64,000 nucleotides of DNA from Gammaproteobacteria bacterium AqS3 (GTDB lineage: Bacteria; Pseudomonadota; Gammaproteobacteria; MEIF01; AqS3), in NCBI GenBank assembly GCA_001750645.1, contig MEIF01000003.1:36001-100000 (forward strand), read 5' to 3'. The first letter of the stretch is position 1, and each line of letters opens with the position of its first letter. The translations under genes were made by a program, and so were the position numbers. A model generated the notes under the pieces. It made no database searches. It was not told the DNA's origin and worked only from the letters and a program-made list of their open reading frames with translations. Positions 14,946 to 48,108 of this stretch are shown here, in pieces.

Positions 14946-14973
14946 TCCCGGCAAAAACTGATTGGGCAGTCCC

Positions 14974-21132: not shown

Positions 21133-21136
21133 GGCG

Positions 21137-21679
21137 CTATGCCCCGCCGGAGCGGCTCTGCCCCTCGCGCAGCCTGTCCTCGACGCCGTGACCCCGCTTG
21201 GGGATCAGCATCTTGCGCACAAAGCTGCAGACCAGCGCGCCGTCCTGGTTGTGGCCGAGCGTCTTGATCGTGACGATGCCCTGGTTGGGGCGCGAGGCGG
21301 ACTCGCGCTTTTCGAGCACCTCGGATTCGGAGTAGAGCGTGTCGCCGGCGAACAGCGGGTGGGTCAGGCGGATGTCGTCCCAGCCCAGGTTGGCAATGGC
21401 CTTCTGGCTGACGTCGGAGACGCTCATGCCGACCATGATCGCCACGGTCAGCGGGCTGCAGACGATGCACTTGCCAAACTCGCTGGCGGCGGCGAACTCG
21501 GCGTCAAAGTGAATCGGGTGCGTGTTCATGGTCAGCAGCGTGAACCAGGTGTTGTCGGCCTCGGTGACGGTGCGCCCGGGGCGGTGCTCGTAGATATCGC
21601 CGATGACGAAGTCCTCGTAGTAGCGTCCGAACGATTCGCGGTAGCGGTTTTCTCCGACTGGATCTGCTTGCTTGACCAT
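21137..21679 (-). CDS. MaoC-family dehydratase
   Basis: YYEDFVIGDIYEHRPGRTVTEADNTWFTLLTMNTHPIHFDAEFA. Confidence 0.88.
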   Translation of the reverse strand: MVKQADPVGENRYRESFGRYYEDFVIGDIYEHRPGRTVTEADNTWFTLLTMNTHPIHFDAEFAAASEFGKCIVCSPLTVAIMVGMSVSDVSQKAIANLGWDDIRLTHPLFAGDTLYSESEVLEKRESASRPNQGIVTIKTLGHNQDGALVCSFVRKMLIPKRGHGVEDRLREGQSRSGGA

Positions 21680-21721
21680 GGGTGCTCTCCTCAGTGCGTG
21701 GGCGGATAGTAGATGAAGGCC

Positions 21722-23439: not shown

Positions 23440-23442
23440 GCC

Positions 23443-23757
23443 TCAGACCGGTTCGGTCAGGATGAAAATCGGGTTGTCGGTCCACTCCTGGTACTGCGCG
23501 GCGACCTGCTGCATGGCCTCGCTGGCGGCCATCTCGCTCGCCAGACCCTCGACGCTGTTGACCTCGAGCACCTCGATGTACTGATAGGGCGGGGCCTCGT
23601 CCGAGCCGAATATCCCGGTCGCGCGCAGCAGGTCAAAGCCGTCGATGGATTTCAGGCTGGTGGCCGACGGAATGTCGACCTCCCTCGCCCACTTCTCATA
23701 AGCAGCCGGGTCCTTGCCCGGCTTGAGATTGCAAATCACGATGATCTTGGTTGACAT
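23443..23757 (-). CDS. HapK-like (REDY-like) small protein
   Basis: KIIVICNLKPGKDPAAYEKWAREVDIPSATSLKSIDGFDLLRATGIF, recalled family pattern only. Confidence 0.5.
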   Translation of the reverse strand: MSTKIIVICNLKPGKDPAAYEKWAREVDIPSATSLKSIDGFDLLRATGIFGSDEAPPYQYIEVLEVNSVEGLASEMAASEAMQQVAAQYQEWTDNPIFILTEPV

Positions 23758-23826
23758 GGACTGATCCTCCCAAATAGGTCAAAGCCGGGCGGAATGGTAT
23801 AACAATATGGCTTTTGACTGGTGCGC

Positions 23827-29071: not shown

Positions 29072-29935
29072 ATGTCCAAGAAAAAATCGCCTGTGCGCAA
29101 AACCCGGCTGAACTGGCGCAGCCTGCTGTTCGTCCCCGCCCACCGCCCCGACCGCTTTGAGCGGGCGCTGAATTCCGGCGCCGATGCCATCTGCATCGAC
29201 TGGGAGGACGCCGTCGGCGCCGAGGAGAAGCACCGCAGCCACGAGCACACCGCCCGATTTTTCGCCGGCCTGGGGGGCGCACCGCCGGTCGGCTGCACCG
29301 TGCGCATCAACTCGGTTGACAGCCCGTGGTTTGGCGACGACCTGGCCGCCGTGCGCGCCCTGCCCTCCTACGTGATGGCGATGCCGGCCAAGGCGCGCTT
29401 TGACCACATCGACACGGTCTGCGGCCAGCTGGACGGGCGCCCGTGCCTGCCGCTGCTGGAGGACGCCGTCGGCATCGAGCAGGCCTATCAGATCACCGCC
29501 ATCCCCCAGGTGCTCGCCGTCATGCTGGGCGGGGTGGATCTGGCTGCGCAGCTGGGAGCCGGGATTGACTGGGACGCCCTGCTCTACGCCCGCTCCCGAA
29601 TGGTGATGGCGGCGGCGGCCGGCGAAGCCCTGGCGATTGATGTGCCCTCGCTTGAGCTGGACAACGCCGACAGGGTCTGCAGCGAGACCGAGCGCGCCAA
29701 AAGCCTGGGCTTTCGCTGCAAGGCGGTCATCCACCCGAAGCAGATCGAGCCGGTGCATCGGGGTCTGGCGCCCAGCGAGGCCGAAGTCAACCGCGCCCGG
29801 GGCATCCTCCAGGCCAGCGCCCAGAGCGGCGGCAATGCCGTGGCCTACGAGGGCATCATGCTGGACGAGGCCGTTCTGCTGGTCGCCCGCAGCACGCTGC
29901 GCCGCGCCGGGATCAACCCCGACGATCCGGCCTGA
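29072..29935 (+). CDS. CoA ester lyase (HpcH/HpaI aldolase / citrate lyase beta family)
   Basis: RSLLFVPAHRPDRFERALNSGADAICIDWEDAVGAEEK...GFRCKAVIHPKQIEPV. Confidence 0.9.
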   Translation: MSKKKSPVRKTRLNWRSLLFVPAHRPDRFERALNSGADAICIDWEDAVGAEEKHRSHEHTARFFAGLGGAPPVGCTVRINSVDSPWFGDDLAAVRALPSYVMAMPAKARFDHIDTVCGQLDGRPCLPLLEDAVGIEQAYQITAIPQVLAVMLGGVDLAAQLGAGIDWDALLYARSRMVMAAAAGEALAIDVPSLELDNADRVCSETERAKSLGFRCKAVIHPKQIEPVHRGLAPSEAEVNRARGILQASAQSGGNAVAYEGIMLDEAVLLVARSTLRRAGINPDDPA

Positions 29936-29951
29936 GCTGGATCAGAGATTG

Positions 29952-29976
29952 TCGGCTCGGTCGACTCCGGCGCCGT
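29952..29976. repeat. 25-bp exact direct repeat, left copy (partner 35647-35671)
   Basis: tcggctcggtcgactccggcgccgt. Confidence 0.9.
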
Positions 29977-30002
29977 AGCTGGGGCAATGGGGCCTTGCAC
30001 AT

Positions 30003-33000
30003 CTAGTCTTCAATCTGAATCCTGACACGATGAAGCCTGTAGTCCTTTCGAACAGCGACAACCTCTCCGGTTTTACACCCCCATACAGCTTTGGCGATCG
30101 GAGAATCCGGGCTGATGACCCCTCTCAATGGGGCAGGTGTCTGTCCTTTTTCAGCGATCGCCAAATTTTCATCGTCAAAACTCGCCTCCAGATAATGGAG
30201 AGTGAATCGAGTTCCAAACCCGACTTGGTCTGAACCCGATGCAGAATCATTTGCTCCTGCATGACTCGGTGATTCAGAGAGATCCAGATTCTCCAACTCA
30301 TCATCATCAACATTTTGATGAAGCTCATCCGCTGCGGCAGAGGAAACATTGGGTTGGGTTTTCGCCTGCATCAATCTTTTACTGATCGCTCGCTGGAGCT
30401 TTTCAAACTCGTGCTTGGGATTTTGAAACCAGTTGGTCGACCAAATCCTGTGTATGCACCACCCCCGTTCCTTCAATATCTGCTGGCGCAACCTGTCCCG
30501 CTCCCGAGCCGATTTGGATGAATGATATTTGGCCCCGTCGCACTCCACTCCGAGCAGATAACCATAAGGATATTCAGGATGTTTGATTCCGATGTCAACG
30601 AAATATCCGCTTACTCCAACTTGAGGATCCACCTCATACCCGGCATCCCTTAACAGAGAGATGACATGTTCCTCAAACGGGCTTTCCGGCTCTCTCTTGG
30701 TGACCTCGCCGGCTTCCAAAATCCCTGTCTTGCTGTAAGACAGCCAACCCGACAACATGGCCGTCCCTGGATTATTTTCGTTGACATCCCCGGGTTGTAG
30801 GCTGGTATAGGTCACCATCTGGCACTTGGCGCGTGAAAACAGAACATTCAGGCGGCGTCTGCCATTAATGCCCGCAATGGGGCCAAAGCGTTGATGCACT
30901 TTTCCGCCCGCCTCCTCTGGGCCATAAACCGTGCCAATGAAAATCACGTCTCTTTCATCGCCCTGGACTTTTTCGATATTTTTGATGAAGAACTTCTCCA
31001 GGCCGCCGTTTTTCTCTTCCCAAGCTTCGCAGTAAGCAGCAATTTCTGTGTCAGTGACTTGGAGCTGGTCAAACATTTGCTGCAAGAGTTCCTGCTGCTT
31101 AATGTTCATCACAACGACTCCAAGAGATTTATTGCGATGCGCCTTCATGAACTCGGCAATTCCATCCAGCATGGCTTGAGCCTCAAGCGGATTGGTGCCC
31201 GAACGATAAACCGCATTTTCAACAGGAATTTGATGGACGCCGAGGGAGCTGCCTTCAGGATTAGAGTGGGGGAAAATAATCAGATCACCGTCATACATCT
31301 TTTTGTTTGAGTAGGCGATCAGGCGCCCGTCCCGGGAACGGTAGTGCCAGCGCAGGCGCCGTTTGGGATGAAACGCCAGATTGGCCATCTGCAGGATGGA
31401 CTCCTCCTGAGTTTGCAGATCTTCATCCACCTCATCGCTGTCGCTGTCCCGGACAAAGAAATCAGTCGGCGGAAGCTGATTTTGATCTCCGACCACCACA
31501 AGCTGCTTGCCCCGCATGATGGCGCCCATGGCCATATAAGGCTCCATCTGAGACGCTTCGTCAATGATTACGAGATCAAAACTCAGATTGTTCTTATCGA
31601 CATACTGGGCCACTGCAAGAGGAGACATCATCCAGCAGGGTTTGAGTTCCAAGAGCGCATCTCTGGCCTTTGAAACAATGTGCCTGGGTGATTTGTATCT
31701 TTTTTCCAATGAAATTTGATGGTTAATAAGGCTCATATCAGTCCATTCACTTCTGCGACCTCTGCCAATGCCGGGCGGCGGGCTGCATTGTTCTTGAATC
31801 TGCAAAGCCAAGATTTTTCGATTCAACTTAATTACCTGCTCATCCAATTCAGCAAACTTGACTCTGGCGCCCTCCACCAAGTCATGTGTTTTGAACTTCT
31901 CCAATTCTCTCGGACATTCATTAGCCAAGACCTGTGCAACGGAGTGGACTGCCATCAATCGTCCCGCCTCGGTCAGGCTGTGACCCTCGGGCGTGTTATA
32001 TGTCTCAATGGCTTTCACGACCTTGCTGACCGCCTCGTCCGCAGAGAGCCTATTGCGGAGTGAGTTTTTATCTGACGCCAACAGCAGCGGTTGTGCTCCC
32101 TCAGCCATGCATCCATCAAGTGTGGCCTTGATCTCGGCAAAGGTTTTTTGCTGGAAATCAAGTATTTTCTTCAGGCCCTCAGTTTCATGCAGCTTTTTAA
32201 CCTTTTCTTGAAATGATGCATGGAGGGCGCCCAGCTCCTTCAATTCCTCCAACACATCGCGCCCTTCCCTGCAGTTCAAGTGCGAAGCCAAAAATTTCCT
32301 TTTTTCTGCCGGCCCAAGCAGTTCTTCATCCAGTTGTTTGACCGCCCGCAAAACAGCAGTTATTTCTTCAATCGTGTTGTTGTCAACGTCAATTAACTTA
32401 TCCAGAAAATCTGTTTCTGTCAGAACCTGTTCAATAGACAGACGACATCTTTCAATATCTGATACCAGTGAAGAAAATGTCTCATAGCCTATCGGCCCGC
32501 CGATTTCTTCCGCAAACCCTATCCCATTCAAGGCATTCTGGTGCAGCTGCTGATATTCGCTCTCAGCCTCATTCAGCCACTCTGAAAAGACTTGATATGG
32601 ATCAGTGAATGGGTTCTTTTCCAGAAAACGAACATTTCGCGGGATAGAGGCCAGCAGCGACAGGTCCCTGAACAGATGATCCTGCAGCTTATTGACATTT
32701 TGATCATCCCGTATCAACCCTATCAGCTCAAGGACATTCAAATAACCCTCTTCATCTTCGGAGTCGAAGGCAGCCAGCACCTCAGGCAGGCTGCTTCTGA
32801 GATCTTCCGACATCTTTTGGTGCTCGGCAAGTTCAAACAGATCTCCAGCGGCCTGCTCCCGATCAAAGGGAGCTGTTTTGTTCTTGTTGATTGAAAGGTA
32901 GAAGTTTCTGGCCTTTCGGTATTTGAAGTCAAGGAATGAAAAGAAATGCTCGGGCTGGGAGAGTTTGCTGACATGCTGCAGAAGCATGCCCAGCGGCGGC

Positions 33001-35528
33001 ATCAAGAAGAAACTGAACTTTGGGGTCAGTGAATCTTTCAGTTTTTTCAACTCCCTTGCCCTCCTGATCAAGCCGGCAAGCTTCCTAACATCTTGGGCAT
33101 CTATTTCAAACTCGCCCAATCTCGAAGAGATTTCATCCGGCAAATTTTTCGCCAATTCAGCAGCCGCCCTAAATTCATCAAGCCCGACACTTTTGAGTTC
33201 AGCAGATTGCCGCTCAAAAAATGGTTCGAATTCAGCCTTGCACTCCCGGGCAATTTCAAGCTCATGCCTCTTTTCTTGGTCAGCCCTGATGAGATCATTT
33301 AAGATGTCATGCGTTGCATGAACTGGAGGGTGAAGATCAAGATGCTCCAGCGTATCAAGGATGCCCTTCAGTTCGGAAAGTCTTTCCCGGCTGGGAATGT
33401 TTTGAAAAAACCTTGAGAGGTTTGACAATGACTCTAGGATGGATTCAATCGATTCAATATCTATGTTGTGATTCTCCTCGCTGACAGCAAGTTCTTTCAG
33501 GGCATCCCCCAATACTGCCTCCAAGTTTGCAGCCAAGCCAATGATCTCAATTTCTGCCGATGCATTTTCCCCAATAAAATTATCCTCCTGTTCAAGCATT
33601 AGGCTGTCTTGCTCTAGGTTTATCTTTAAATCATTTATTGCTTCTATAGACTCCGATATATCCACGCATTCATCAATTATTTCTTTTGCTTGAAAGACTG
33701 AAACAGAGCCGGCAAACCTGTCCCAGATCGTGCTGGCCTTTTCAACCTCAATACATGCAGATTGGTACTTTTCAAGCAGCTCACCAACTGAATCGCTCTC
33801 ATAATATTGTCGTGCAAATTCAGAGTGAATTTCTTCTCTCAACTCTCGGGGAAGCTCAGAAACCTTGCCTTCTTCCTTGATATATTCCGACATGGCATCA
33901 AACCGGCTCATCTCTCCGAACCCCGATTTGCCGCCAAGGAATTTAATATGGTCGGACAAGTATTCTTGTAATTTCGAGAGCTCTTTTTTTCTTCTATCAA
34001 AATAGGCTCGCCTGTCCTCAACCGGATCCATATTCACCCGCTTGGCCAAAGACTGAACAAACTCCTTTCGACTCTCATTGGGATGAATCGGCAGGACAAA
34101 CTCCCCCAAACCGCAGGCCTTGAGCCTGCTTTCAACCACTTCAATCGCAGCTTTTTTCGAGGCAACAAAAAGCACCTTCTTGCCACCATGCAGCGCGCTG
34201 GCGATGGCATTCACAATCATCTGCGATTTGCCGGTTCCGGGCGGCCCCTCAACGGCAAGATTTTTGCCATCTGCAATGTCCACCAGGGCGCTAAATTGTG
34301 AGGCATCGCTGTCAAGAACAAGACGAGGGACTTTCTTTGCAATATTAGGATCATCGGTCTCATACTCGTTTGCAGTGCCAGAAGAATCAGCCGATGATTC
34401 TGACCCATTTAATAGCGCATCGACAATATCCGTGACAATGATTTCATTCGGATCAAGATCCTCATAAATGGCGATCTGCAGGGCGCGAAAGTCTCCGAAA
34501 CAGACCAATCGCCTGACACGTCCCTCGATTTTGTTCAGGTCCAATTCTGACTGAACCCGCTTCAGATAATCCTCCAGCCCATCCTCTTCCCCATCAAAAA
34601 CAGGCAGATCAAGACCGAATTCATTCTTCAACTTATGCAAAAGAAACCGGTTATGGGAGGCGCCGTCCCCGGCGCTGGTGACTGAAAAACGAAAGCCTCC
34701 CCTGGAAGCTTTCTTCTCAAGGCTTACCGGCAATAAAATCAGGGGGGAGCAGAACTTTTGGTCGTCGTTCTCGACATCCTTCCACTCCAGAAAACCAAAT
34801 GCACCCCGCACAATGTTGACACCGGTCTCATCCAGAAAAGACTGGCCTCTGGAATACACGCCCTGCGCCACTCGCTCCAGATCCTTGGGCAGCAGCAGAG
34901 TTTGTATTTTCCTGTCTTCATGTCTGCCGTCTGGACTCACTTCATCGGGCGGGGGCAATTCATAGTCAGGGTTTATGCCGTTCTGTCGGGCATGGTCTGC
35001 AAGGTTTTGGTGGGCTTTGTCTTGGGCGCGCGCCGGCATTCCCAACTGTTCACGCACTTTGTCTTTGAGTTGACGATCCAATTCTCTCTTCTGTTCTTCA
35101 GCATCCTCCGCTGAGGCATCTATCGCTTCAAGCGCATGGCTGTAGTCCTCGTCAATGATTTGGGCTTGGAGAAAAGCGTAATTGAAATCAGCCTCGTCTT
35201 CATCAGCGGGATCGCTGTCAAGTCGCGGAAGGGGGTCAAACGAAAGTTTTTTGTCGTCTATCAGTTTTGCAAACAGGATCCCCGGCTGCTCATCAACCAC
35301 CCTGATCAGCCGGGTGGTGTTTCCATAAAGCTGGGTGTTGATATATCTATTTTTTCTCGTGAGATCCAGGGCCCCCGTTCTCAGCTGCTCAATCTTGTCT
35401 TTTGTGAATTGAAGCAGCCCTTCATCCATATTTTCCATGTGGGAAAAGCCAGGCAGGTGTGCTGATGCCTCCGCTGCTGAGGCTTCATTCTCTGATTCAA
35501 ACTCTTCCGGCATATCGAACAGCTTCAA
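30003..35528 (-). CDS. DUF4011 - SF1 helicase - Vsr/MTES_1575-like endonuclease protein, 1841 aa; Hhe-type defence candidate
   Basis: KIEQLRTGALDLTRKNRYINTQLYG (DUF4011-like); AVEGPPGTGKSQMIVNAIASAL (Walker A); DLVIIDEASQMEPYMAMGAIMRGKQLVVVGDQNQLPP; C-term FVDIGIKHPEYPYGYLLGVECDGAKYHSSKSARERDRLRQQILKERGWCIHRIWSTNWFQNP. Confidence 0.88.
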   Translation of the reverse strand: MKLFDMPEEFESENEASAAEASAHLPGFSHMENMDEGLLQFTKDKIEQLRTGALDLTRKNRYINTQLYGNTTRLIRVVDEQPGILFAKLIDDKKLSFDPLPRLDSDPADEDEADFNYAFLQAQIIDEDYSHALEAIDASAEDAEEQKRELDRQLKDKVREQLGMPARAQDKAHQNLADHARQNGINPDYELPPPDEVSPDGRHEDRKIQTLLLPKDLERVAQGVYSRGQSFLDETGVNIVRGAFGFLEWKDVENDDQKFCSPLILLPVSLEKKASRGGFRFSVTSAGDGASHNRFLLHKLKNEFGLDLPVFDGEEDGLEDYLKRVQSELDLNKIEGRVRRLVCFGDFRALQIAIYEDLDPNEIIVTDIVDALLNGSESSADSSGTANEYETDDPNIAKKVPRLVLDSDASQFSALVDIADGKNLAVEGPPGTGKSQMIVNAIASALHGGKKVLFVASKKAAIEVVESRLKACGLGEFVLPIHPNESRKEFVQSLAKRVNMDPVEDRRAYFDRRKKELSKLQEYLSDHIKFLGGKSGFGEMSRFDAMSEYIKEEGKVSELPRELREEIHSEFARQYYESDSVGELLEKYQSACIEVEKASTIWDRFAGSVSVFQAKEIIDECVDISESIEAINDLKINLEQDSLMLEQEDNFIGENASAEIEIIGLAANLEAVLGDALKELAVSEENHNIDIESIESILESLSNLSRFFQNIPSRERLSELKGILDTLEHLDLHPPVHATHDILNDLIRADQEKRHELEIARECKAEFEPFFERQSAELKSVGLDEFRAAAELAKNLPDEISSRLGEFEIDAQDVRKLAGLIRRARELKKLKDSLTPKFSFFLMPPLGMLLQHVSKLSQPEHFFSFLDFKYRKARNFYLSINKNKTAPFDREQAAGDLFELAEHQKMSEDLRSSLPEVLAAFDSEDEEGYLNVLELIGLIRDDQNVNKLQDHLFRDLSLLASIPRNVRFLEKNPFTDPYQVFSEWLNEAESEYQQLHQNALNGIGFAEEIGGPIGYETFSSLVSDIERCRLSIEQVLTETDFLDKLIDVDNNTIEEITAVLRAVKQLDEELLGPAEKRKFLASHLNCREGRDVLEELKELGALHASFQEKVKKLHETEGLKKILDFQQKTFAEIKATLDGCMAEGAQPLLLASDKNSLRNRLSADEAVSKVVKAIETYNTPEGHSLTEAGRLMAVHSVAQVLANECPRELEKFKTHDLVEGARVKFAELDEQVIKLNRKILALQIQEQCSPPPGIGRGRRSEWTDMSLINHQISLEKRYKSPRHIVSKARDALLELKPCWMMSPLAVAQYVDKNNLSFDLVIIDEASQMEPYMAMGAIMRGKQLVVVGDQNQLPPTDFFVRDSDSDEVDEDLQTQEESILQMANLAFHPKRRLRWHYRSRDGRLIAYSNKKMYDGDLIIFPHSNPEGSSLGVHQIPVENAVYRSGTNPLEAQAMLDGIAEFMKAHRNKSLGVVVMNIKQQELLQQMFDQLQVTDTEIAAYCEAWEEKNGGLEKFFIKNIEKVQGDERDVIFIGTVYGPEEAGGKVHQRFGPIAGINGRRRLNVLFSRAKCQMVTYTSLQPGDVNENNPGTAMLSGWLSYSKTGILEAGEVTKREPESPFEEHVISLLRDAGYEVDPQVGVSGYFVDIGIKHPEYPYGYLLGVECDGAKYHSSKSARERDRLRQQILKERGWCIHRIWSTNWFQNPKHEFEKLQRAISKRLMQAKTQPNVSSAAADELHQNVDDDELENLDLSESPSHAGANDSASGSDQVGFGTRFTLHYLEASFDDENLAIAEKGQTPAPLRGVISPDSPIAKAVWGCKTGEVVAVRKDYRLHRVRIQIED

Positions 35529-35646
35529 ACTGCCTCTTATTTTTATCGCATTAATTCTAGACTATGGAAAATTCAGAGATTAGGGTGACGATTGCCTGAG
35601 AAAAGGCTTCTCCGGGGTCGCCCGCAGCACGCAGCACCCGAAATCA

Positions 35647-35671
35647 TCGGCTCGGTCGACTCCGGCGCCGT
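35647..35671. repeat. 25-bp exact direct repeat, right copy (partner 29952-29976)
   Basis: tcggctcggtcgactccggcgccgt; similarity continues as (a/t)gctg. Confidence 0.9.
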
Positions 35672-35704
35672 TGCTGCCGCTGGAAAATCGGGATGGCTTT
35701 GGCT

Positions 35705-39157: not shown

Positions 39158-40009
39158 TCATTGCAGTTTGGGCTCCTTGCTGTAGAAGTCTTCAAGCTGT
39201 TCGTACCATTCCGGCTGCAGCCTGGATTTGATGATTCCCGTGAGCTCCTCGCAGAGCTCAAACTTCACGTTTGCAGACTGCACTCGACGGCGCACTTCGA
39301 TATGTTTGATGTCACCAGGGGTGTCTCTGCCCTTGGGAACATAAAACAACACGGCGTATTCCTGTTTCCAGCGAGCCTCGTGCCATCTGAGCCATCTCCG
39401 GGGGCGCTCAACGGGAAGCACGCTGTAAAAAGCATCCTTTTCATTTTCAGGATGCTCGTTAAAGTATTGCGATAATTCATCCTCAATATCAGCCTCAGAC
39501 GGAGGTTTTGGATATTTTAAAAATTTCGCCGATGAAGCCTTCTTGGGCTTTTTCCCAATAACAATTTCATCAAATGAATCGGATAATTCTCCCGAGGCAC
39601 AGTCCCATACAAAGAGGTATGGCTTTGATGTTTGTCTCGACCGTTCCTCAATCCTCTCCTCTTTATGCTCGCCCTTTTCAAAATCATCTCCGAGTGCGGT
39701 CAGCTGATAAGCCCCCGCCTGAGAGAGTTCAACATAGCCCTGATCAGCCATGAGACCGAGGTGCTGAAATATGAATTCTCGATCATCCACGCCCAGCACC
39801 TTGGCCAATTCTTTTTTGGTGTTGACCCCATTTTTAATCAATCCCATAAACACCTTGTCCAAAGTGTCGGGGCCCGACCTTGTCGAAACCAAAATATCGG
39901 CTTCATACTTCCAGCAGGGAAATTGCACCGGAATAATTTTGCTGCACTCCAAGTCATGGTGCTCCCCTTGGACATCCCTCTGTAATTTCAGCTGCTCTTG
40001 TCTGTTCAT
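39158..40009 (-). CDS. Hypothetical protein with probable winged-helix segment; last gene of the helicase/kinase-fold locus
   Basis: GLIKNGVNTKKELAKVLGVDDREFIFQHLGLMADQGYVELSQAGAYQLTALG; ATGA overlap with the upstream helicase gene. Confidence 0.65.
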   Translation of the reverse strand: MNRQEQLKLQRDVQGEHHDLECSKIIPVQFPCWKYEADILVSTRSGPDTLDKVFMGLIKNGVNTKKELAKVLGVDDREFIFQHLGLMADQGYVELSQAGAYQLTALGDDFEKGEHKEERIEERSRQTSKPYLFVWDCASGELSDSFDEIVIGKKPKKASSAKFLKYPKPPSEADIEDELSQYFNEHPENEKDAFYSVLPVERPRRWLRWHEARWKQEYAVLFYVPKGRDTPGDIKHIEVRRRVQSANVKFELCEELTGIIKSRLQPEWYEQLEDFYSKEPKLQ

Positions 40010-42630
40010 TGCAAAGCCTCCTCAAGCGAGTTAAACACAAAGCCCTGTTCCGCGATTTCATCGGCGATCAGCCCCAGCAGCGGCTTTTGTCGCTCCTTGT
40101 CGCCCGGAATATCGGGATCCGGAATAGGCCCCGCCTTCTTGGACAAAAACTCAAGGTCCCCGACGATAATCAGCAATTCCCTGGCGCGGGACAGCGAGAC
40201 ATTCAGGCGGCGGCGGTCGTCCAAAAAGCCGATTTTTCCGCCCGTGGCACTGCGCACCACGTCAAAGATGACGATGTCATTTTCTTTTCCCTGAAAACCG
40301 TCAACCGTATTCGGCTCAATGCCCCCCTTGAACTGTCTGAGTTTTTGAGCGGGCTTTAATCTGCGGATTCTATCCCGCAGCAATCCCACCTGACTTCGAT
40401 ATCCCGCAATGACGGCAATATCCTTTTCCTCCCCCAGTTCCCTCAACTTTTCATTCAAAGTTTTCAGCGTTTCCTCGATGACCCTGGCGTTGCACCTGTT
40501 CTGACGCGACGTGCTCTTCCCATTGTCGTGACGATCCTTGTGGTGCGAGGTATCGATAAACACAATCGAGGTGGGGCGCCTGAATCTCAGCGGCGGGTTG
40601 GCTGTTTTCTTCTTGTCAAGCTCCTCGTCCGATGCCAGTTCGCCGCCATAGAAGTGCCTCGAAATCAAATCGCCTATCTGCTTGGGCATGCGCCTCTGCA
40701 CTTTCAGCATCTGCTGCAGCTGCCCCTGTTCCGGCTTCTGAAAGTTTTCGATCAGGATCTCAAACAGGCTTTTTCCATATTTCCTGCGCAAGGTCTCGTC
40801 CGGATATTCGAACTCCTCTGAAGAATCCGCCCTGACCTTTTCCAAAACATCCTTGTCGGTGGTCACAAAAGGCGGCAGCTGTTTGTGGTCGCCGATCAGA
40901 ATCGCCCGCTTGGCGCGCAGGATGGGAATCAGCGATTCAGCCGGCGTCGCCTTGCTGGCCTCATCCATAATCACGAAATCAAACGTCCCCTTGAACAGGC
41001 TGCGATACCGCGCCGCCGCCATGTGTACGCAGGTGGCGCCAATCACATTTCTTGAGCGCAGAAAAGCCTCCTCAAACGACTCAAGTCCATAGCCGTCATA
41101 TCCGCGAATCAGACAACGATCTTTTCTGTTTGGGGCGCCCGCCTCCCTGAGAAATTGATGATATTTTTTCAAAATTCTCTCGATTTTCCGAGCCTTTTCC
41201 GGGGCTCTATCTTGCAGCTGCTTGAAATATTGATTGGAGCGATTGATTTTATCCTTGCCCCAAGACTGAAGGGACTTGTCAAGCCATAGCGGCTTGACCG
41301 GCTGATCAATCTTGTTCTCGTCCGCAGCAAGCCTGACGGGCCGAATTCCGGATTTCTCAGACCTGCCGAGACGTTCCAAGACGTTATCGACAGCCAGGTT
41401 GGTCTGCGAGCACACCAAAATGCGTTTGCGGTCATCCCCGGTCAAAATCCGACGGATGATCTCTTCAATAACCGTGGTCTTGCCGGTCCCCGGCGGGCCG
41501 TGAATCAGAAATATCGGTTTCTGAGTCAGGGCGCCCTGAACCGCCTTTTCTTGGTTTTCATCCAGCCGTGTGCCTTCAGATTTCGCACCGGTTGATTTGG
41601 AAAAATATGAATCCGGATCAGGGTCGCCTTCTCCCCAATCATCGTCATCTTGGAAGAGTGAATATCCGTCCTCAGGAGTTTCATTCACCTCATCGGAAAC
41701 ATCCAGCGAAACAATCTGCGGAAGGTGCCCTCCCGGATTCAGCAGCACACTCTCAAAACCGGGCTCAACCATTTCCCGCCGGCTAAAGTCCTCAACCGCC
41801 TCGATCTGCCGGCGCAGGGGAACTGTCTCACGGCTGACATCTTCATACAGTTCGCCGGGATAGCCGCCGGGTTTGTCCTTGAAATCGCGCATGACGACCT
41901 CAAAGCAGGTTTTCACCGAATGCAGCCTGCCCTTGGCATTGATGCCAGATTCAATCAGAACTTCAGTGTTCGACTCGCCGTCCTGCAAAAGTTCTGAGAT
42001 CTCCTGATGCCTCTCTTCAAATTCATGATCGTGATCTCTGGAGACCGCAAAGTAAAAAAGCTCTCCCGAGCGCCAGCAAAATTCATAATCCAAATCTGCG
42101 AGGCCGCCATCCAGGACCAGCGTTCCGGCTTGATGGCTTTGCGGTGACTCGCCTCTTATGTTTTTCAGAACGATGACCAGGCGCGGCTGCTCTGGTGCAT
42201 CAAAAACATAGCCGACATTTACGGCCTGCTGATCAGATGAATTTCCGGAGGACTCCGCCTTGGCTTTGAAGTCGACGGCTTCCAGCGTGCGGGAGTGTTC
42301 CCACATTTCATCTATTCTGGTTTTCAGATCGCTGCGAGAGGTTTTGTCTTCATCCAAGAGAAAGTTCAATTTGGGGATTTTGTCCCCATCTCTTCTTAAT
42401 TCCTGAATATAGATATACCGCTCCTTGAACGCATTTTCTTCCAGGTGCTCTTTTTCCTGCTCGGGCACCCTCTTCCATTCATCCAGTTTTTCTATCCTGC
42501 TGTCACGCTGCTGCGTCAGATGGTGGTGTTTGTTGATATCGTCGTTCAGGACATCCTCTGAGGAGTATTCAAACCGAGCCTTAAACACTTCCCCTGAAAT
42601 TTTTCTGCTGTTTCGGTGGAAAAAAGGCAC
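40006..42630 (-). CDS. SF1 (UPF1/DNA2-like) helicase, 874 aa (helicase 1)
   Basis: KPIFLIHGPPGTGKTTVIEEIIRRIL; DFVIMDEASKATPAESLIPILRAKRAILIGDHKQLPPF; NTVDGFQGKENDIVIFDVVRS; RRRLNVSLSRARELLIIVGD. Confidence 0.92.
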   Translation of the reverse strand: MPFFHRNSRKISGEVFKARFEYSSEDVLNDDINKHHHLTQQRDSRIEKLDEWKRVPEQEKEHLEENAFKERYIYIQELRRDGDKIPKLNFLLDEDKTSRSDLKTRIDEMWEHSRTLEAVDFKAKAESSGNSSDQQAVNVGYVFDAPEQPRLVIVLKNIRGESPQSHQAGTLVLDGGLADLDYEFCWRSGELFYFAVSRDHDHEFEERHQEISELLQDGESNTEVLIESGINAKGRLHSVKTCFEVVMRDFKDKPGGYPGELYEDVSRETVPLRRQIEAVEDFSRREMVEPGFESVLLNPGGHLPQIVSLDVSDEVNETPEDGYSLFQDDDDWGEGDPDPDSYFSKSTGAKSEGTRLDENQEKAVQGALTQKPIFLIHGPPGTGKTTVIEEIIRRILTGDDRKRILVCSQTNLAVDNVLERLGRSEKSGIRPVRLAADENKIDQPVKPLWLDKSLQSWGKDKINRSNQYFKQLQDRAPEKARKIERILKKYHQFLREAGAPNRKDRCLIRGYDGYGLESFEEAFLRSRNVIGATCVHMAAARYRSLFKGTFDFVIMDEASKATPAESLIPILRAKRAILIGDHKQLPPFVTTDKDVLEKVRADSSEEFEYPDETLRRKYGKSLFEILIENFQKPEQGQLQQMLKVQRRMPKQIGDLISRHFYGGELASDEELDKKKTANPPLRFRRPTSIVFIDTSHHKDRHDNGKSTSRQNRCNARVIEETLKTLNEKLRELGEEKDIAVIAGYRSQVGLLRDRIRRLKPAQKLRQFKGGIEPNTVDGFQGKENDIVIFDVVRSATGGKIGFLDDRRRLNVSLSRARELLIIVGDLEFLSKKAGPIPDPDIPGDKERQKPLLGLIADEIAEQGFVFNSLEEALQ

Positions 42631-42717: not shown

Positions 42718-44244
42718 TTACTTTTCTTTTTCGTTGACTTCCCACGGCGTCGTGAAGCAGTCATTGGTGTTTAGGCAGTGCAGCAGTTCCTCTATTTCCT
42801 CGTGTGCGGGCGGCTTCTCTCCTTTCATAAACGAAAGCGGGATCACATCCCTGTACTGGGGATGGAAGCCCTCGTGATTTCGCATAGCTTTGAGCAATTC
42901 ACGATATTCAGGCCGCTCCGATGGATTGGGAGACAGGCAGCTTGAAATGGTTTCGTCCCCCAAACCCGCCAGCTCCTGAGAAAAAATCTGGCCCAACTCG
43001 TAGACATCATCAAGCCAGCTGCGTCTGCCCTGAAAGCCCTGCGGCATCACTTCCAATGCCGTGAAAATATCCGCCAAGCCCATAAACGCCAGGCGCACCT
43101 CATGGCGCCGCTCATCCACAAAGATGGCGCCAGCCCCTGCAAAATGTCCGGACAGGCGGCGGCGGTAGAAGTTCTCCAGCAATTCCGCAGTTGCCCGCAT
43201 GACCCAAAGCGGGCAGGTGCCGCCCTCTTGTCTTAGGTGTTCCAATGGAACCCATTCCTCGTTCCCTTCGTATACGAGACACAGATGCCCGCCCTCCTCA
43301 TAGTCGGCCACCCAGGGCAGCAGCGAGGGCTGATTGCGCAGAGCGGACAGGCGGGAAAGCGCCCTAGAGTAAGCATCGGGATGCTGAGTGCGTCTGTTGG
43401 GAATTCGAAGCACCCAGCAGGGCTCAAAATCCTGCGAATCTTCCGCCTCCCAGAGCTCAATCCCTTCGAAAATTTCAAGGGTTTTTCTGATTAAATCGTA
43501 TCCACTGTTATTAGCAGTGCTTTCACTTGAATCCAGTAAAGGCATAACCATTTCCTCCTCGTATTGGGGATGAAAATCCTCGTAATCTTGCATGGCTTTG
43601 AGCAATTCACGATATTCGGGTCGATTAGACGGATCGGAAGAGAGGCATCTTGAAATCGTCTCGTCCCCCAAACTCTCCAACTCTTGAGAAAAAGTCTCAC
43701 CCAACCCGTAGACATCATCAAGCCAGCTGCGTCTGCCCTGAAACCCTGACGGCATCACTCCCCGAGCCGTAAAAATATCGGCCAGGCCCATAAATGCAAG
43801 GCGAACATCTTGGCGCCTCTCATCCACAAAGATGGCGCCAGCCCCTGCAAAATGTCCGGACAGACGACGGCGGTAGAAGCTCTCCAGCAATTCAGCGGTT
43901 GCCCGCATGACCCAAAGCGGGTAGGTTCCGTCCTCTTGCCTCAGATACTGCAAGGGCACCCATTCATTGCTCCTTTCATATACGAGACACAGATGCTCGT
44001 CATACTCATAGTTGGCCGCCAAGGTCAATAGCGCAGGCTCGTTGCGAAGAGCAGACAAACGGGAAATCGCCTTGGCGTAGGCATCGGGATGTTGGAGGCG
44101 CCCATTGGGAATGCAAAGTACCCAATAGGGCGCAGAGTCCTGAGATCCTCTCGCCTCCCAGAGCTCAACCCCTTCAAATAGGTCAAAAGTTTTTCTAATT
44201 AAATCGTATCCACTGTTATTAGCAGTGCCTTCGTTTGCAGCCAT
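42718..44244 (-). CDS. Tandem-duplicated kinase-fold (apparent double pseudokinase) protein, 508 aa
   Basis: Two ~236-aa copies. Each has a kinase-like hinge (LCLVYE), a GAGAIFVDERR..VRLAFMGLADIF segment at the HRD/DFG position without catalytic Asp residues, and a C-lobe LDDVYGLGETFSQEL...CLS.DPSNRPEYRELLKAM. Confidence 0.65.
   Translation of the reverse strand: MAANEGTANNSGYDLIRKTFDLFEGVELWEARGSQDSAPYWVLCIPNGRLQHPDAYAKAISRLSALRNEPALLTLAANYEYDEHLCLVYERSNEWVPLQYLRQEDGTYPLWVMRATAELLESFYRRRLSGHFAGAGAIFVDERRQDVRLAFMGLADIFTARGVMPSGFQGRRSWLDDVYGLGETFSQELESLGDETISRCLSSDPSNRPEYRELLKAMQDYEDFHPQYEEEMVMPLLDSSESTANNSGYDLIRKTLEIFEGIELWEAEDSQDFEPCWVLRIPNRRTQHPDAYSRALSRLSALRNQPSLLPWVADYEEGGHLCLVYEGNEEWVPLEHLRQEGGTCPLWVMRATAELLENFYRRRLSGHFAGAGAIFVDERRHEVRLAFMGLADIFTALEVMPQGFQGRRSWLDDVYELGQIFSQELAGLGDETISSCLSPNPSERPEYRELLKAMRNHEGFHPQYRDVIPLSFMKGEKPPAHEEIEELLHCLNTNDCFTTPWEVNEKEK
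42811..43518. repeat. Intragenic tandem duplication, second unit (708 bp)
   Basis: TANNSGYDLIRKT... unit offset by 708 bp from the first copy at 43519-44226. Confidence 0.85.
43519..44226. repeat. Intragenic tandem duplication, first unit (708 bp)
   Basis: See partner 42811-43518; long near-identical stretches such as ctcatccacaaagatggcgccagcccctgcaaaatgtccggacag. Confidence 0.85.
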
Positions 44245-44276
44245 GGCCCACTGGTTGTTCCTGTCCCCCTGAGCCG

Positions 44277-44468
44277 TATATGGGGACTCCCGGCCCTATT
44301 TCAAGGCCGCCTGCAGGACCTCGATGACATCGTCCGGGCTTTTGACGGGTCTGGGGTTGTTGGCGATCGACATGTCGCTGCAGACGTGTTCGGCAATGCC
44401 GGCGAAGTCGTCCCCGCCGATGCCGACGGCCTCCAGCGTTCCGGGTATGCCGAGCTGTTCGATCAACC
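44277..44468. repeat. Direct duplication of the ADH 3' end, left copy (partner 46902-47093)
   Basis: Offset of exactly 2625 bp; 3 mismatches in about 190 bp by eye. Confidence 0.95.
44296..44466 (-). pseudogene. Fe-ADH C-terminal fragment (56 residues plus stop)
   Basis: LIEQLGIPGTLEAVGIGGDDFAGIAEHVCSDMSIANNPRPVKSPDDVIEVLQAALK*, matching the intact ADH C-terminus (…VLQTALK*). Confidence 0.9.
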
Positions 44469-44491
44469 TCTAGATATAGATGCACTCGGCT

Positions 44492-46864
44492 TCATTTCAA
44501 AGCCTTATCAAGCGATTGAAACATAAGTCCTTTACTTTTTATTTCATCGGCGATCAACTTCAATAATGGCTTTTTTCTTCGCTTCTTATCTTTTGGATCA
44601 TTGGCATCCCAAACAGGCTTGGCTCTATTTGATAGAAAATCAAAGTCACCAACAATAATTAGTAGTTCCTTGGCTCGCGACAGAGCGACATTCAGCCGTC
44701 GGCGGTCATCTAAAAACCCTATAGAACACTTATAGGGGCTGCTTCGAACCATGTCAAATATGACGATGTCATTTTCGCGCCCCTGAAAACTGTCAATTGT
44801 GTTGACCTGAATATCTCCCTTAAATTTTTTAGAGAGTTTCAATTCATCAACTCTATTTTCCAGTAATTCCACTTGGCCTCGATACCCAGCAATAACTGCC
44901 ACATCTTTTTTATCTTTATTGTTTTTTACAACCAGCCTTCTATTCAAGGTTTTCAGTGTTTCTACAATAACTTCCGCACTACACTCGTTTTGGCGGTTTT
45001 TTGGATCATCATTATCTTTGGGGTCACTGCTCTTCGAAATATCAATAAACAGAATCGATGCGGGATGTTTTTTAAATGGCAGAGGTTGATCATTTCTTTG
45101 ATGTTTGGGAGATGCTAATTTTCCTTCATAGAAATATTTGGAAATCAAATCGCCTATCTGACTCGGCATTCGTCTTTGAATGTTTAGCATTTGGTAGAGC
45201 TGTCCCTCTTCTGATCGAAAATGTTCTTTCTCTGATTCCTCAAAACCTTTGATTAGAATTTCAAATAAGCTTTTTCCATATTTGTTACGCAATTTATTGT
45301 CTGAATACTCCAATACTTCCGGAGAATTTTCTCTTTCTATATCCCAAACCTTTTTATCACTTGTGACAAAAGGCGGCAGCTGCTTGTGATCGCCGACTAA
45401 AACCAGCTGCTGCTTTGCACGCAATATAGGAATCAAAGCTTCTGCCGGTGTCGCAGTACTTGCCTCATCCATGATCACAAAATCAAAGCCTTGCTCGTAT
45501 AGCTCGCGATACTGCCCATGCGCTATATGCACGCAAGTTGCACCTATCACATTTCTTGAGTGCAAAAAGTTCCTTTTGAAAGACTCCTCTTCACTGTCTA
45601 AATGCCTATTTAAATGAGTCCTTTCCAAAGTAGCCTTCCTTTGAAGCCAAAAATTATCAAGCCAAATTTGTTGAACGAGGTCGCTAATTTTGGATTCTTC
45701 CGCAGCCAGCCGAACCGGACGAATGACATCGCCTCCGAGGTTTGCTGTTTCCTTCATGAGTCGCTCTAGAACGTTGTCCACAGCTAAGTTGTTCTTTGAA
45801 CAGAGCAAAATACGCTTGCCATCGTCCCTGTTCAAAATCTTACGAATAATTGTCTCAATGACTTTGGTCTTTCCAGTACCCGGTGGCCCGTGAACCAAAA
45901 ATATTGGGCTTTGATTTAGAGATTCGTAAACTGCTTTCGCTTGATTTCCATCCAAGTCGTTTTCTTCAGTGCGCAAAGTATCCAGATCAAAATAGCCATC
46001 GATCTTGCCTTTCTCGGTATTTATAGGCAACCGAAGATCTCCGTACATCACATAGTTTGGTTCCGGTTCTTGGTTCGATATCTCTGGATACAGCAGTATA
46101 TTTTCAAGCTCCGGGTTGGCTATTTTGCCGTCCCGCAATTTTTCAACGGCATCAATTTGCTTCTTTAGACCCTTAATTTCGCGATGAACATTTCGATAAA
46201 GCCTGCCCGGAATTTCCGGAATTTTCTTAAAACCATGCATCACCACCTCTAAACACATTCTTGCAGAATTAAGTTTCCCCGTGGTATTAAATTGCGCACC
46301 AGAGCTGGGTTCAATGCTAATTTTGAGATCAGGCTTATTTTTATCCAAAAATCCTAGTATTTTTTTGCCAACTTGTTCAGGTTCAAAACTATTATCTTTT
46401 GAAGCAATCAGAAAATATGAAATATTTTCACATAGCCAGCAAAATTCATAGTCTAAAGGTTCGATATCAACACCTTTCAAATTAAGCTTGCCCGGCTGAT
46501 CTTCCTTCATTTTCCACCCCGATAAGGATAGGTCTTCTAGGGCTATTACTAGGCGCGCTTTTGATTTTTTAGGCGGAATATAGATGCTTCCGAAGGCGAG
46601 CTCATCCGACGAACTGATCTCTAAAGCTTTACCCTGCTCCCATATATCCTTTATTTTTTCTCTTATGTGATCAGAAGAGGCCTTGCTGTCAGCAAAACTG
46701 TCCAAGAGAAAACGCAACTCGAGTTGTTTATTTTTATTCTTTTTTAATTTCCGAACATGGATGAATGGAACTTCAAATTTACTTCGTTTTAGGTGCTTAA
46801 TTTCTAACTCAGGAACTTTTTTCCATTCATCTAATATTTCATCCTTGCTGCGGCCTTTTATCAC
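44492..46864 (-). CDS. SF1 (UPF1/DNA2-like) helicase, 790 aa (helicase 2), paralogue of 40006-42630
   Basis: SPIFLVHGPPGTGKTKVIETIIRKIL; DFVIMDEASTATPAEALIPILRAKQQLVLVGDHKQLPPF; NTIDSFQGRENDIVIFDMVRS; GTG start; low GC; lacks the N-terminal ~45 aa of helicase 1. Confidence 0.88.
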   Translation of the reverse strand: MIKGRSKDEILDEWKKVPELEIKHLKRSKFEVPFIHVRKLKKNKNKQLELRFLLDSFADSKASSDHIREKIKDIWEQGKALEISSSDELAFGSIYIPPKKSKARLVIALEDLSLSGWKMKEDQPGKLNLKGVDIEPLDYEFCWLCENISYFLIASKDNSFEPEQVGKKILGFLDKNKPDLKISIEPSSGAQFNTTGKLNSARMCLEVVMHGFKKIPEIPGRLYRNVHREIKGLKKQIDAVEKLRDGKIANPELENILLYPEISNQEPEPNYVMYGDLRLPINTEKGKIDGYFDLDTLRTEENDLDGNQAKAVYESLNQSPIFLVHGPPGTGKTKVIETIIRKILNRDDGKRILLCSKNNLAVDNVLERLMKETANLGGDVIRPVRLAAEESKISDLVQQIWLDNFWLQRKATLERTHLNRHLDSEEESFKRNFLHSRNVIGATCVHIAHGQYRELYEQGFDFVIMDEASTATPAEALIPILRAKQQLVLVGDHKQLPPFVTSDKKVWDIERENSPEVLEYSDNKLRNKYGKSLFEILIKGFEESEKEHFRSEEGQLYQMLNIQRRMPSQIGDLISKYFYEGKLASPKHQRNDQPLPFKKHPASILFIDISKSSDPKDNDDPKNRQNECSAEVIVETLKTLNRRLVVKNNKDKKDVAVIAGYRGQVELLENRVDELKLSKKFKGDIQVNTIDSFQGRENDIVIFDMVRSSPYKCSIGFLDDRRRLNVALSRAKELLIIVGDFDFLSNRAKPVWDANDPKDKKRRKKPLLKLIADEIKSKGLMFQSLDKALK

Positions 46865-46901
46865 GAGATGGCAACACTGTTTCTATCCCCCATAAGAACC
46901 C

Positions 46902-47093
46902 TATATGGGGACTCCCGGCCCTATTTCAAGGCCGTCTGCAGGACCTCGATGACATCGTCGGGGCTTTTGACGGGTCTGGGGTTGTTGGCGATCGACATGT
47001 CGCTGCAGACGTGTTCGGCAATGCCGGCAAAGTCGTCCCCGCCGATGCCGACGGCCTCCAGCGTTCCGGGTATGCCGAGCTGTTCGATCAGCC
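46902..47093. repeat. ADH 3'-end duplication, right (intact gene) copy
   Basis: See partner 44277-44468. Confidence 0.95.
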
Positions 47094-48108
47094 CCTCGAT
47101 GTGCCTGATCAGCTCCTCGGTGGCGGCGGTGTCGTCGTCCTGGGCATCCAGTCTGAGGGAGCGGGCAATGCGGGCGTAGCCGGCGGAGGCCGCAGGGGCG
47201 TTCCAGCGCATGACATGCGGCAGCACGATCGCGCTGGCCTCGCCGTGTCCAACCCCGTGGGCGCCGCCGAGCTGGTGCCGGATGGCTGCCACCAGCCCCA
47301 GGCTGGAATTGAGCACGACGCTGAGCGACAGGTAGGCGGCGTAGAGCAGTCGCTCCCGACTGTCCAGGCGCCCTGCATCGCCGTGCGCCCCCTGCACCGA
47401 TGCGGGCAGTCCCTCGGTCAGGATCGTGGCCGCCTCAAAAGCGTATAGATCGGTGAAGCGCCCGGCCCGATTGGAGACGATCATCTCAAGGCAGTCGGAC
47501 AGTATCTTCATGCCGGTGGCGGCCCAGAGTGCATCGGGGGTCTGGCTGCAGATCACCGAGTCGTGGAACACCACCTTGGGAACCACTTTGGCGTCGACAT
47601 AGCCGTGCTTCTCGCCGGTCTGCCGGTCGGTGATGCCAATGCCCGCTGTGTACTCGCTGGCCGAAAGCGTCGTCGGGATCGCCAAGATCGGCAGCTTGGG
47701 CTGCCCCAGCCTCGGAATGACCGGCACCTCGCCGGGGCGGTAGCGGATGCGCATCGACTCAAAATCCGCACCCTCGGCCACCACCATGGCAACGCCCTTG
47801 GTCAGGTCAACCACCGAGCTGCCGCCCAGGCAGATCAGCGCATCGACATCGGCTTGGGAGACGGCCCGGGCGGCCCGCAGCACAACGTCCCTGGGGGTGT
47901 GGGCGACCGACTCGCCAAAGCTGCCGGCATGGGCGGCGCCGAGCGCCCGTTCAACCTGCTCGGCGATGCCGTTTCGAACCAGGCTGGGGGTGGTCAGCAG
48001 AAAGGCCCGGCTGAGACCGTGCTGCAGCAGGACCTCGGGCAGCTGCTGCTGGACGATGTTCGGCCCGTGGCAGATCATTTCCGTGCGGGGCAGAATCAAA
48101 TTTCCCAT
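46921..48108 (-). CDS. Iron-containing alcohol dehydrogenase / maleylacetate reductase-like
   Basis: DALICLGGSSVVDLTKGVAMV; LPILAIPTTLSASEYTAGIGIT; RHQLGGAHGVGHGEASAIVLPHVMRWN. Confidence 0.88.
   Translation of the reverse strand: MGNLILPRTEMICHGPNIVQQQLPEVLLQHGLSRAFLLTTPSLVRNGIAEQVERALGAAHAGSFGESVAHTPRDVVLRAARAVSQADVDALICLGGSSVVDLTKGVAMVVAEGADFESMRIRYRPGEVPVIPRLGQPKLPILAIPTTLSASEYTAGIGITDRQTGEKHGYVDAKVVPKVVFHDSVICSQTPDALWAATGMKILSDCLEMIVSNRAGRFTDLYAFEAATILTEGLPASVQGAHGDAGRLDSRERLLYAAYLSLSVVLNSSLGLVAAIRHQLGGAHGVGHGEASAIVLPHVMRWNAPAASAGYARIARSLRLDAQDDDTAATEELIRHIEGLIEQLGIPGTLEAVGIGGDDFAGIAEHVCSDMSIANNPRPVKSPDDVIEVLQTALK

What the first reader, a model, noticed from the sequence alone, without database searches (positions are those of the whole stretch)
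44243..47094. Helicase 2 is bracketed by a ~98%-identical duplication of the ADH 3' end
Seen: 46902-47093 (last ~57 codons, stop and 3' flank of the Fe-ADH gene) recurs at 44277-44468, offset 2625 bp, with 3 mismatches. Weaker similarity (GGGGGA(C/T)AG(G/A)AACA...GCCAT) continues to the start region of each downstream gene. Thus helicase 2 and the kinase-fold gene each sit in the same position directly after an ADH 3' end. Inference: recent integration of a helicase-2 cargo by recombination in the ADH 3' end (Campbell-like or site-specific), leaving an intact ADH upstream and an ADH tail downstream; the ADH 3' end may be a cargo hotspot.
Basis: partly seen in the sequence, partly recalled or inferred. 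Interest (0 to 1): 0.72.

Follow-up and report, generated by a model that had tools for sequence, protein, structure and literature searches.

The report
Defence genes bracketed by duplicated gene ends
A foreign antiviral-type helicase gene sits between an intact housekeeping gene and a broken copy of that gene's tail, and the same scar surrounds many other defence genes in this genome, which suggests that defence genes arrive on DNA that recombines through neighbouring genes rather than by a dedicated integrase.

Summary
The duplication is real. 46902-47093 (Fe-ADH 3' end plus flank) recurs at 44277-44468 with 188/192 identities, and nowhere else in the genome. Helicase 2 (GC 40% in a 62% genome) lies between the copies. 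It is an orphan MkoA-type helicase. The next operon (divergent kinase-like gene, helicase 1, MkoB-like gene) is Mokosh-like, and helicases 1 and 2 (46% identity) are sisters in a tree of sampled homologues. Helicase 2 lacks helicase 1's first ~38 residues and joins the ADH tail through a 26-bp non-homologous junction.

The pattern is not unique. A second defence gene in the window (PDC-S37/Hhe, 30003-35528) is bracketed by its neighbour's duplicated 3' end. In 2.18 Mb of the genome, low-GC defence islands repeatedly show duplicated ends of adjacent genes (comM, rsmE, recN, enoyl-CoA hydratase): 16/75 islands have direct flank repeats, 0/75 inverted, 0/225 mismatched flanks. Only two strong tyrosine-recombinase matches, no serine recombinase and no Ku were found.

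Best explanation: incoming DNA carrying cargo plus flanking gene fragments integrated additively by single-crossover or one-sided homologous recombination, stacking alternative alleles in tandem. Closest known: "insertion with long target duplication" of RM genes in H. pylori, and HFIR. A new variant of a known kind; MAG artefact not formally excluded.

The parts
46921..48108 (-). Intact iron-containing alcohol dehydrogenase (395 aa), host-like gene (GC 66%) whose 3' end is duplicated
   Evidence: Pfam ADH_Fe_C 1e-33 and Fe-ADH 5e-26; GC
46896..47100 (.). Repeat copy attached to the intact ADH: last ~60 codons, stop and 3' flank
   Evidence: the repeat finder 96% over 205 nt, offset 2625; gapped extension to 46878
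44492..46864 (-). Helicase 2: orphan MkoA-type SF1 helicase (790 aa, GC 40%, GC3 38%); helicase motifs intact by inspection; starts ~38 residues short of helicase 1
   Evidence: AAA_11/AAA_12; PADLOC MkoA 4e-125; BLASTP 46% to helicase 1 starting at residue 6 against 44; GC3
44466..44491 (.). Non-homologous junction between the helicase-2 stop (ATGA, as at the hel1/MkoB overlap) and the truncated ADH tail
   Evidence: edge similarity not better than chance; no significant match to the AhpC-side flank or mkoB start
44271..44475 (.). Truncated second copy of the ADH 3' end (no start codon, in-frame stop near its edge), lying upstream of the kinase-like gene
   Evidence: homology traceable to 44256
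42718..44244 (-). 508-aa protein of two tandem ~236-aa units (75% aa, 82% nt identical); weak kinase-like similarity, apparently without canonical catalytic motifs
   Evidence: 708-nt internal repeat; units aligned; PADLOC mad6 1e-6; no Pfam
40006..42630 (-). Helicase 1: MkoA-type SF1 helicase (874 aa, GC 52%)
   Evidence: PADLOC MkoA 1e-140; sister of helicase 2 in a tree of MkoA-like sequences
39158..40009 (-). MkoB-like protein (283 aa, GC 48%), matches only the N-terminal third of the MkoB profile; no PLD domain found
   Evidence: PADLOC MkoB 3e-10, profile 6-198 of 610; no Pfam family
29072..29935 (+). Second case: HpcH/HpaI aldolase gene whose 3' end is duplicated
   Evidence: Pfam HpcH_HpaI 1e-25
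29881..29981 (.). Second case: repeat copy at the intact aldolase gene's 3' end
   Evidence: 23 nt at 91% and 46 nt at 83% (25 exact) in the same order as at 35616-35676, which lacks ~40 bp
30003..35528 (-). Second case cargo: 1841-aa PDC-S37/Hhe-type defence protein (DUF4011, helicase, MTES_1575 nuclease), GC 49%
   Evidence: PADLOC PDC-S37 2e-285, Hhe 4e-203; Pfam
35616..35676 (.). Second case: decayed copy of the aldolase 3' end beyond the cargo

Best explanation
Helicase 2 was added to a pre-existing ADH / Mokosh-like locus by integrase-free, additive homologous recombination. The incoming DNA carried helicase 2 together with a fragment of the flanking ADH 3' end. Its far end was joined non-homologously, either by ligation into a circle or directly to the chromosome, and RecA-type recombination through the ADH tail inserted the whole unit. 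This leaves an intact hybrid ADH, the new cargo, the illegitimate junction, and a truncated ADH tail in front of the old cargo. Because the donor flank came from a related lineage with the same host gene, alternative defence alleles end up in tandem. The same route formed most of the other gene-end-bracketed defence islands in this genome. Shown: the duplicated gene ends, the defence cargo, the direct-only orientation, the truncated junctions, the near-absence of site-specific recombinases, and a synonymous excess in the comM/rsmE copies. Inferred: circularisation or one-sided invasion, the donor lineage, and the entry route (for example transformation; a ComEC homologue is present).
For: Repeat and sharp versus fading edges. 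Only two copies in the genome. Helicases 1 and 2 are sisters but 46% identical with GC 52% against 40%, while the tails are 98% identical, so the cargo was not duplicated together with the tail. Second case in the same window. Low-GC islands: direct flank repeats 16/75, inverted 0/75, mismatched flanks 0/225 (Fisher p = 1e-5 and 6e-11); with other thresholds 11/68, 0/68 and 2/295. Low-GC inserts next to duplicated ends of GC-rich genes: 11 hits at about 10 loci, against 2 for gene middles, both at loci already counted. Cargo is overwhelmingly defence. C154 and C134 read A-cargo1-B'A'-cargo2-B, the product expected of a fragment A'-cargo-B' with joined ends. comM/rsmE copies differ mostly at synonymous sites (about 34 of 72 against ~25% expected, p = 4e-5 to 2e-3), so they diverged largely as working genes before being truncated. 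No serine recombinase, no Ku, two strong tyrosine-recombinase matches, ComEC present. Experimental precedent: linear DNA in E. coli is circularised by ligation and integrates by RecA-dependent single crossover, duplicating 109-950 bp of target (PMC3240628).
Against: No relative with the empty or single-cargo locus exists in the collections searched, so the direction and history of the event are not observed. For the ADH locus itself the tail differences are too few for the synonymous test (p = 0.15). No B' fragment is recognisable in the 26-bp junction. recN tail copies show no synonymous excess. The genome is a MAG of 234 contigs, and 31% of it was not scanned. About half of the 16 islands with direct flank repeats are tandem paralogues or low-identity repeats rather than gene-end duplications.
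Confidence: 0.62

Rival explanations
1. Insertion with long target duplication by an RM/defence-linked transposition-like process: the recipient's own target is cut with a long stagger and filled in, so the cargo gains ~100-200-bp direct repeats without any donor flank.
For: Same appearance as the H. pylori RM cases (long and variable target duplications, order of 100 bp; PMC3874152, PMC1643837). Direct orientation and defence cargo fit.
Against: Copies should be identical at birth and then decay neutrally; comM/rsmE copies carry a synonymous excess. The B'A' order at C154 and C134 needs two genes' ends to travel together. No enzyme is known.
Confidence: 0.13
2. Site-specific integration, as when prophage e14 carries a replacement icd 3' end: helicase 2 is a non-autonomous (CIME-like) element whose integrase acted in trans or was lost.
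For: ADH keeps a complete 3' end and a displaced tail lies at the far end; tail sizes of this order are known for integrase sites in protein genes (own knowledge).
Against: Only two strong tyrosine-recombinase matches (the XerC/XerD number) plus one weak one, and no serine recombinase, in the genome. Loci use different genes and both 5' and 3' ends with no common sequence. Two-sided B'A' scars are not att products.
Confidence: 0.07
3. Assembly artefact: alleles of different strains in the metagenome (ADH-helicase 2 and ADH-Mokosh operon) were falsely joined in tandem.
For: The genome is a draft of 234 contigs, apparently a MAG; defence loci are exactly where strains differ, and A-allele1-B'A'-allele2-B is what a false tandem would look like.
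Against: No runs of N inside the fetched contigs (only nine small contigs fully masked). Longest exact repeat at the locus is 68 nt. Junctions are unique and show no overlap long enough for a spurious join. Copies differ by up to 19%, and one has a 40-bp deletion, more than co-binned strains usually show. Many loci are affected.
Confidence: 0.09
4. In-situ tandem duplication of an ADH-tail/helicase segment followed by divergence of the two helicases.
For: Helicases 1 and 2 are each other's closest relatives among sampled sequences; the kinase-like gene also contains a tandem duplication.
Against: Tails are 98% identical and one is apparently unconstrained while the helicases are 46% identical with GC3 62% against 38%; a common duplication cannot give both without replacement of one helicase.
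Confidence: 0.06

Closest known systems
Insertion with long target duplication of restriction-modification genes (Nobusato et al. 2000; Furuta et al. 2010; read through PMC1643837, PMC3874152 and PMC3031569)
   Same: Defence-type cargo without a recognisable mobile element, bracketed by direct repeats of the order of 100 bp made of neighbouring sequence; repeats allow later amplification or excision.
   Different: Described for RM genes by comparing related strains; here the cargo includes Mokosh-like, PDC-S37/Hhe, DRT, Panacea and PDC-S31 genes, repeats are ends of adjacent genes with donor-like divergence, and two-sided B'A' scars occur.
Single-crossover integration of ligated linear DNA and homology-facilitated illegitimate recombination (PMC3240628 and references in it)
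   Same: One homologous joint plus one illegitimate joint; experimental products with 109-950-bp target duplications.
   Different: Shown with engineered plasmids; here inferred from natural scars, with cargo of 1-7 kb and homeologous copies.
V. cholerae T6SS immunity-gene arrays built by successive one-sided insertions (PMC5361080)
   Same: New modules added next to a conserved anchor, with the older module and a truncated gene 3' end pushed downstream.
   Different: There the anchor is the T6SS cluster itself and the cargo effector-immunity modules; here the anchors are unrelated housekeeping genes and the cargo anti-phage-type genes.
[quoted passage not shown] 2017, PMC5635113)
   Same: Cargo turnover through flanking core genes without mobile elements; repair and recombination genes as flanks (here recN, comM).
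   Different: Their model is double crossover, which replaces cargo and leaves no repeats; the scars here record additive events.

Membership tests
Insertion with long target duplication | Defence/RM-type cargo with no recognisable mobile element | tested here: met
   PADLOC/Pfam of cargo; genome poor in site-specific recombinases
Insertion with long target duplication | Long, variable direct repeats (order of 100 bp) of target sequence at both ends | tested here: met
   205-223 nt at ADH, ~60-100 nt at the aldolase gene, 64-397 nt elsewhere
Insertion with long target duplication | Related genome with the uninterrupted, single-copy target | not testable with these tools
Single-crossover or HFIR integration | One homologous joint and one illegitimate joint | tested here: met
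   ADH: tail homology at one end; 26-bp junction with no detectable homology at the other
Single-crossover or HFIR integration | RecA-dependent event with observed recombinants | not testable with these tools
   needs experiment
Integrase-borne island (icd/e14-like) or CIME | Cognate integrase or att core shared between sites | tested here: not met
   two strong tyrosine recombinases, probably XerC/XerD, no serine recombinase; repeats at different loci unrelated
Mokosh type I | MkoA helicase | tested here: met
   PADLOC MkoA 1e-140 and 4e-125
Mokosh type I | Kinase domain fused to MkoA | tested here: not met
   helicases of 874 and 790 aa lack the first ~540-600 profile positions; a separate kinase-like gene precedes hel1, similarity weak
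Mokosh type I | MkoB with PLD nuclease domain | tested here: not met
   283-aa MkoB-like protein matches profile 6-198 of 610 only, no Pfam PLD

The most novel reading that the evidence does not exclude
Defence genes in this lineage travel as integrase-free cassettes whose mobility signal is a fragment of the host's own neighbouring gene: gene-end repeats let the unit excise as a circle by RecA and re-integrate at the same gene in related cells, so allelic defence modules stack in tandem at many core-gene sites. This would be a general, enzyme-less acquisition route for anti-phage systems beyond RM.
Probability: 0.3. Interest if true: 0.8.

Novelty: new variant of a known kind. Interest (0 to 1): 0.6.

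Why it matters
How defence genes reach chromosomal hotspots that carry no integrase is an open question; double crossover in flanking genes has been inferred only statistically (PMC5635113). Truncated duplicates of flanking gene ends are physical scars of additive recombination that can be counted in any single genome. They identify the anchor gene and the junction, and show that two alleles of a defence locus can be kept side by side. They also extend the H. pylori RM observation to several other defence families.

Tried and rejected
tRNA or RNA targets near the repeat: none. A REP/hairpin signal (GTCCCC-N-GGGGAC by the ADH stop): four sites genome-wide, fewer than the reversed control, so dropped. 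Phage or plasmid carriage: no relative of helicase 2 in viral contigs; one distant plasmid helicase (34%); no plasmid hit for the kinase-like gene; only distant phage helicases for helicase 1. Empty-site search: best ADH hits elsewhere are 29-33% identical, so none. A B' or mkoB remnant in the 26-bp junction: not significant. Kinase fold by structure prediction: confidence too low to use, no fold search run. The RM pair at 13411-14945 showed no significant flanking repeat. Some repeat pairs first listed proved to be tandem paralogues or large repetitive proteins (C185, C195, C78, C190) and are not counted as cases.
Full report
OBSERVATION. A whole-genome search gives only these two places. The fading similarity on the 3' flank, up to the start regions of helicase 2 and the kinase-like gene, is better than chance (p about 0.001), while the opposite edge, in ADH codons about 57-60 from the end, stops abruptly. 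The window is positions 36001-100000 of a 100,000-bp contig of a 3.16-Mb, 234-contig draft genome whose GC is 61.7%.

WHAT THE GENES ARE. On the minus strand the order is Fe-ADH (GC 66%), helicase 2 (40%), ADH tail fragment, a 508-aa gene of two tandem ~236-aa units (53%), helicase 1 (52%), a 283-aa gene (48%), then AhpC. Both helicases are MkoA-type (PADLOC E = 1e-140 and 4e-125) and the 283-aa protein matches the N-terminal third of MkoB, so this is a Mokosh-like locus. It is not canonical Mokosh type I: the kinase part is a separate, divergent gene and no PLD nuclease domain was found. Helicases 1 and 2 are 46% identical over their length, and in a tree of MkoA-like sequences they are sisters with full support. 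Searches of 274 class and 399 phylum genomes found no closer relative at strict thresholds. Helicase 2 starts 38 residues short of helicase 1 (residue 6 aligns with 44) and its ATGA stop is followed by a short junction and then the truncated ADH tail. By inspection ATGA is also the helicase 1/MkoB overlap, so helicase 2 may once have been followed by a partner gene. This is inference; the remnant matches nothing significantly.

A SECOND CASE IN THE WINDOW. A k-mer scan for repeats showed that the 1841-aa PDC-S37/Hhe-type defence gene at 30003-35528 (GC 49%) is also bracketed by the duplicated 3' end of its neighbour, an HpcH/HpaI aldolase gene. 29881-29981 matches 35616-35676 in the same order, with 25 exact bases and a ~40-bp deletion.

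GENOME-WIDE TEST. I fetched 2.18 Mb in 91 pieces. Self-comparison gave many low-GC inserts between GC-rich direct repeats. The clearest gene-end cases are: comM 5' end and rsmE 5' end around a type II RM with DUF2971 and a PDC-S31 array (C154); recN 3' tail in three copies separating two Panacea-domain cassettes (C2); enoyl-CoA hydratase 5' end around a restriction-like ATPase gene (C134); a GC-rich 250-aa gene's 5' end beside a type IIG RM, C5 methylase and DRT4 reverse transcriptase (C167); a 377-aa gene's 5' flank around a second PDC-S37 gene (C165); GC-rich sequence of unidentified genes around a PstI-type RM (C111) and beside DRT4 and ThsB genes (C163). The names comM, rsmE and recN rest on Pfam domains (Mg_chelatase, Methyltrans_RNA, SMC_N) and gene length. 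Controls: among 75 low-GC islands, 16 have direct flank repeats, none has inverted ones, and mismatched flanks give 0 of 225 (p = 1e-5 and 6e-11). With other thresholds the numbers are 11 of 68, 0 of 68 and 2 of 295. Ends of GC-rich genes give 11 low-GC hits at about 10 loci; gene middles give 2, both at loci already counted. Caveat: roughly half of the 16 are tandem paralogues or low-identity repeats, which favours direct orientation, so the exact number of true cases is uncertain (about eight to ten including the two in the window).

MECHANISM. Two loci show both flanks. C154 reads comM - cargo 1 - rsmE codons 1 to ~54-76 / comM codons ~104 to 1 - cargo 2 - rsmE. C134 reads A - cargo 1 - enoyl-CoA hydratase codons 1 to ~28 / A' - cargo 2 - enoyl-CoA hydratase. 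This B'A' order is what results when a fragment A'-cargo-B' has its ends joined and enters by a single crossover. In C154, cargo 1 and cargo 2 contain homologous genes (33-43% identity), just as helicase 1 and 2 are homologous at the ADH locus: the added piece seems to be another allele of the same variable locus. The comM and rsmE copies differ mostly at synonymous positions (about 34 of 72 differences against about 25% expected; p = 4e-5, or 2e-3 with a 30% expectation), so they diverged largely as working genes, pointing to a donor lineage rather than neutral decay of a target duplication. ADH itself has too few differences to test. Only two strong tyrosine-recombinase matches (the XerC/XerD complement, by inference) plus one weak one, no serine recombinase and no Ku were found; a ComEC homologue is present. 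An experimental precedent exists: linear DNA entering E. coli is ligated into circles that integrate by RecA-dependent single crossover, with 109-950-bp duplications (PMC3240628).

ARTEFACT. The strongest mundane alternative is false tandem joining of strain alleles in a metagenome assembly. Against it: contigs without internal N runs, a longest exact repeat of 68 nt, unique junctions without the overlap an assembler needs, and copies that differ by 2-19% with indels. Reads were not available, so it stays at about 9%.

KNOWN OR NEW. [quoted passage not shown] pylori strain comparisons (PMC1643837; PMC3874152; the Furuta 2010 paper was not held). V. cholerae T6SS immunity arrays are explained by a one-sided mechanism (PMC5361080), and integrase-less hotspots by double crossover in flanking core genes (PMC5635113). 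What is added here is the breadth of defence cargo, repeats identified as ends of adjacent genes, two-sided junctions, allele stacking and within-genome controls. I therefore rate it a new variant of a known kind.

Noticed in passing
window 30003-35528 with 29881-29981 and 35616-35676: PDC-S37/Hhe-type defence gene bracketed by the duplicated 3' end of an HpcH/HpaI aldolase gene; a second PDC-S37 gene lies on contig C165 (L090:8489-13273), also between direct repeats.
   Followed up: yes
window 42718-44244: The kinase-like gene is an internal tandem duplication (708-nt unit, 82% identical); one unit ends at the start codon. It has no Pfam family and only a weak mad6 hit.
   Followed up: partly
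window 39158-40009: MkoB-like protein covering only the N-terminal third of the MkoB profile and without a PLD domain; possibly a reduced Mokosh variant with a separate kinase-like gene.
   Followed up: partly
L041 (G000:C2) 13829-16042: recN 3' tail occurs three times, the two extra copies sharing the same variants and each sitting ~60-90 bp upstream of a Panacea (SocA) gene: a small cassette array.
   Followed up: partly
L081/L136 (G000:C154) 15786-24394: comM-RM/DUF2971-rsmE'comM'-PDC-S31 array-rsmE: two defence modules stacked between comM and rsmE.
   Followed up: yes
G000 C111 56672, 61615, 95868; C213 49622; C17 1262; C7 1: A different ~200-bp repeat, 87-98% identical, multi-copy across contigs at 5' ends of low-GC genes; looks like a separate repeat family, unexplained.
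   Followed up: no
window 13411-14945: Eco47II-type RM pair (methylase and REase, GC 50% and 42%) in a GC-rich context, without detectable flanking gene-end duplication.
   Followed up: partly
window 1-3962 (G000:C157:22329-39962): End of a 5877-aa repetitive open frame; several other contigs carry giant frames of thousands of aa with related repeats.
   Followed up: no
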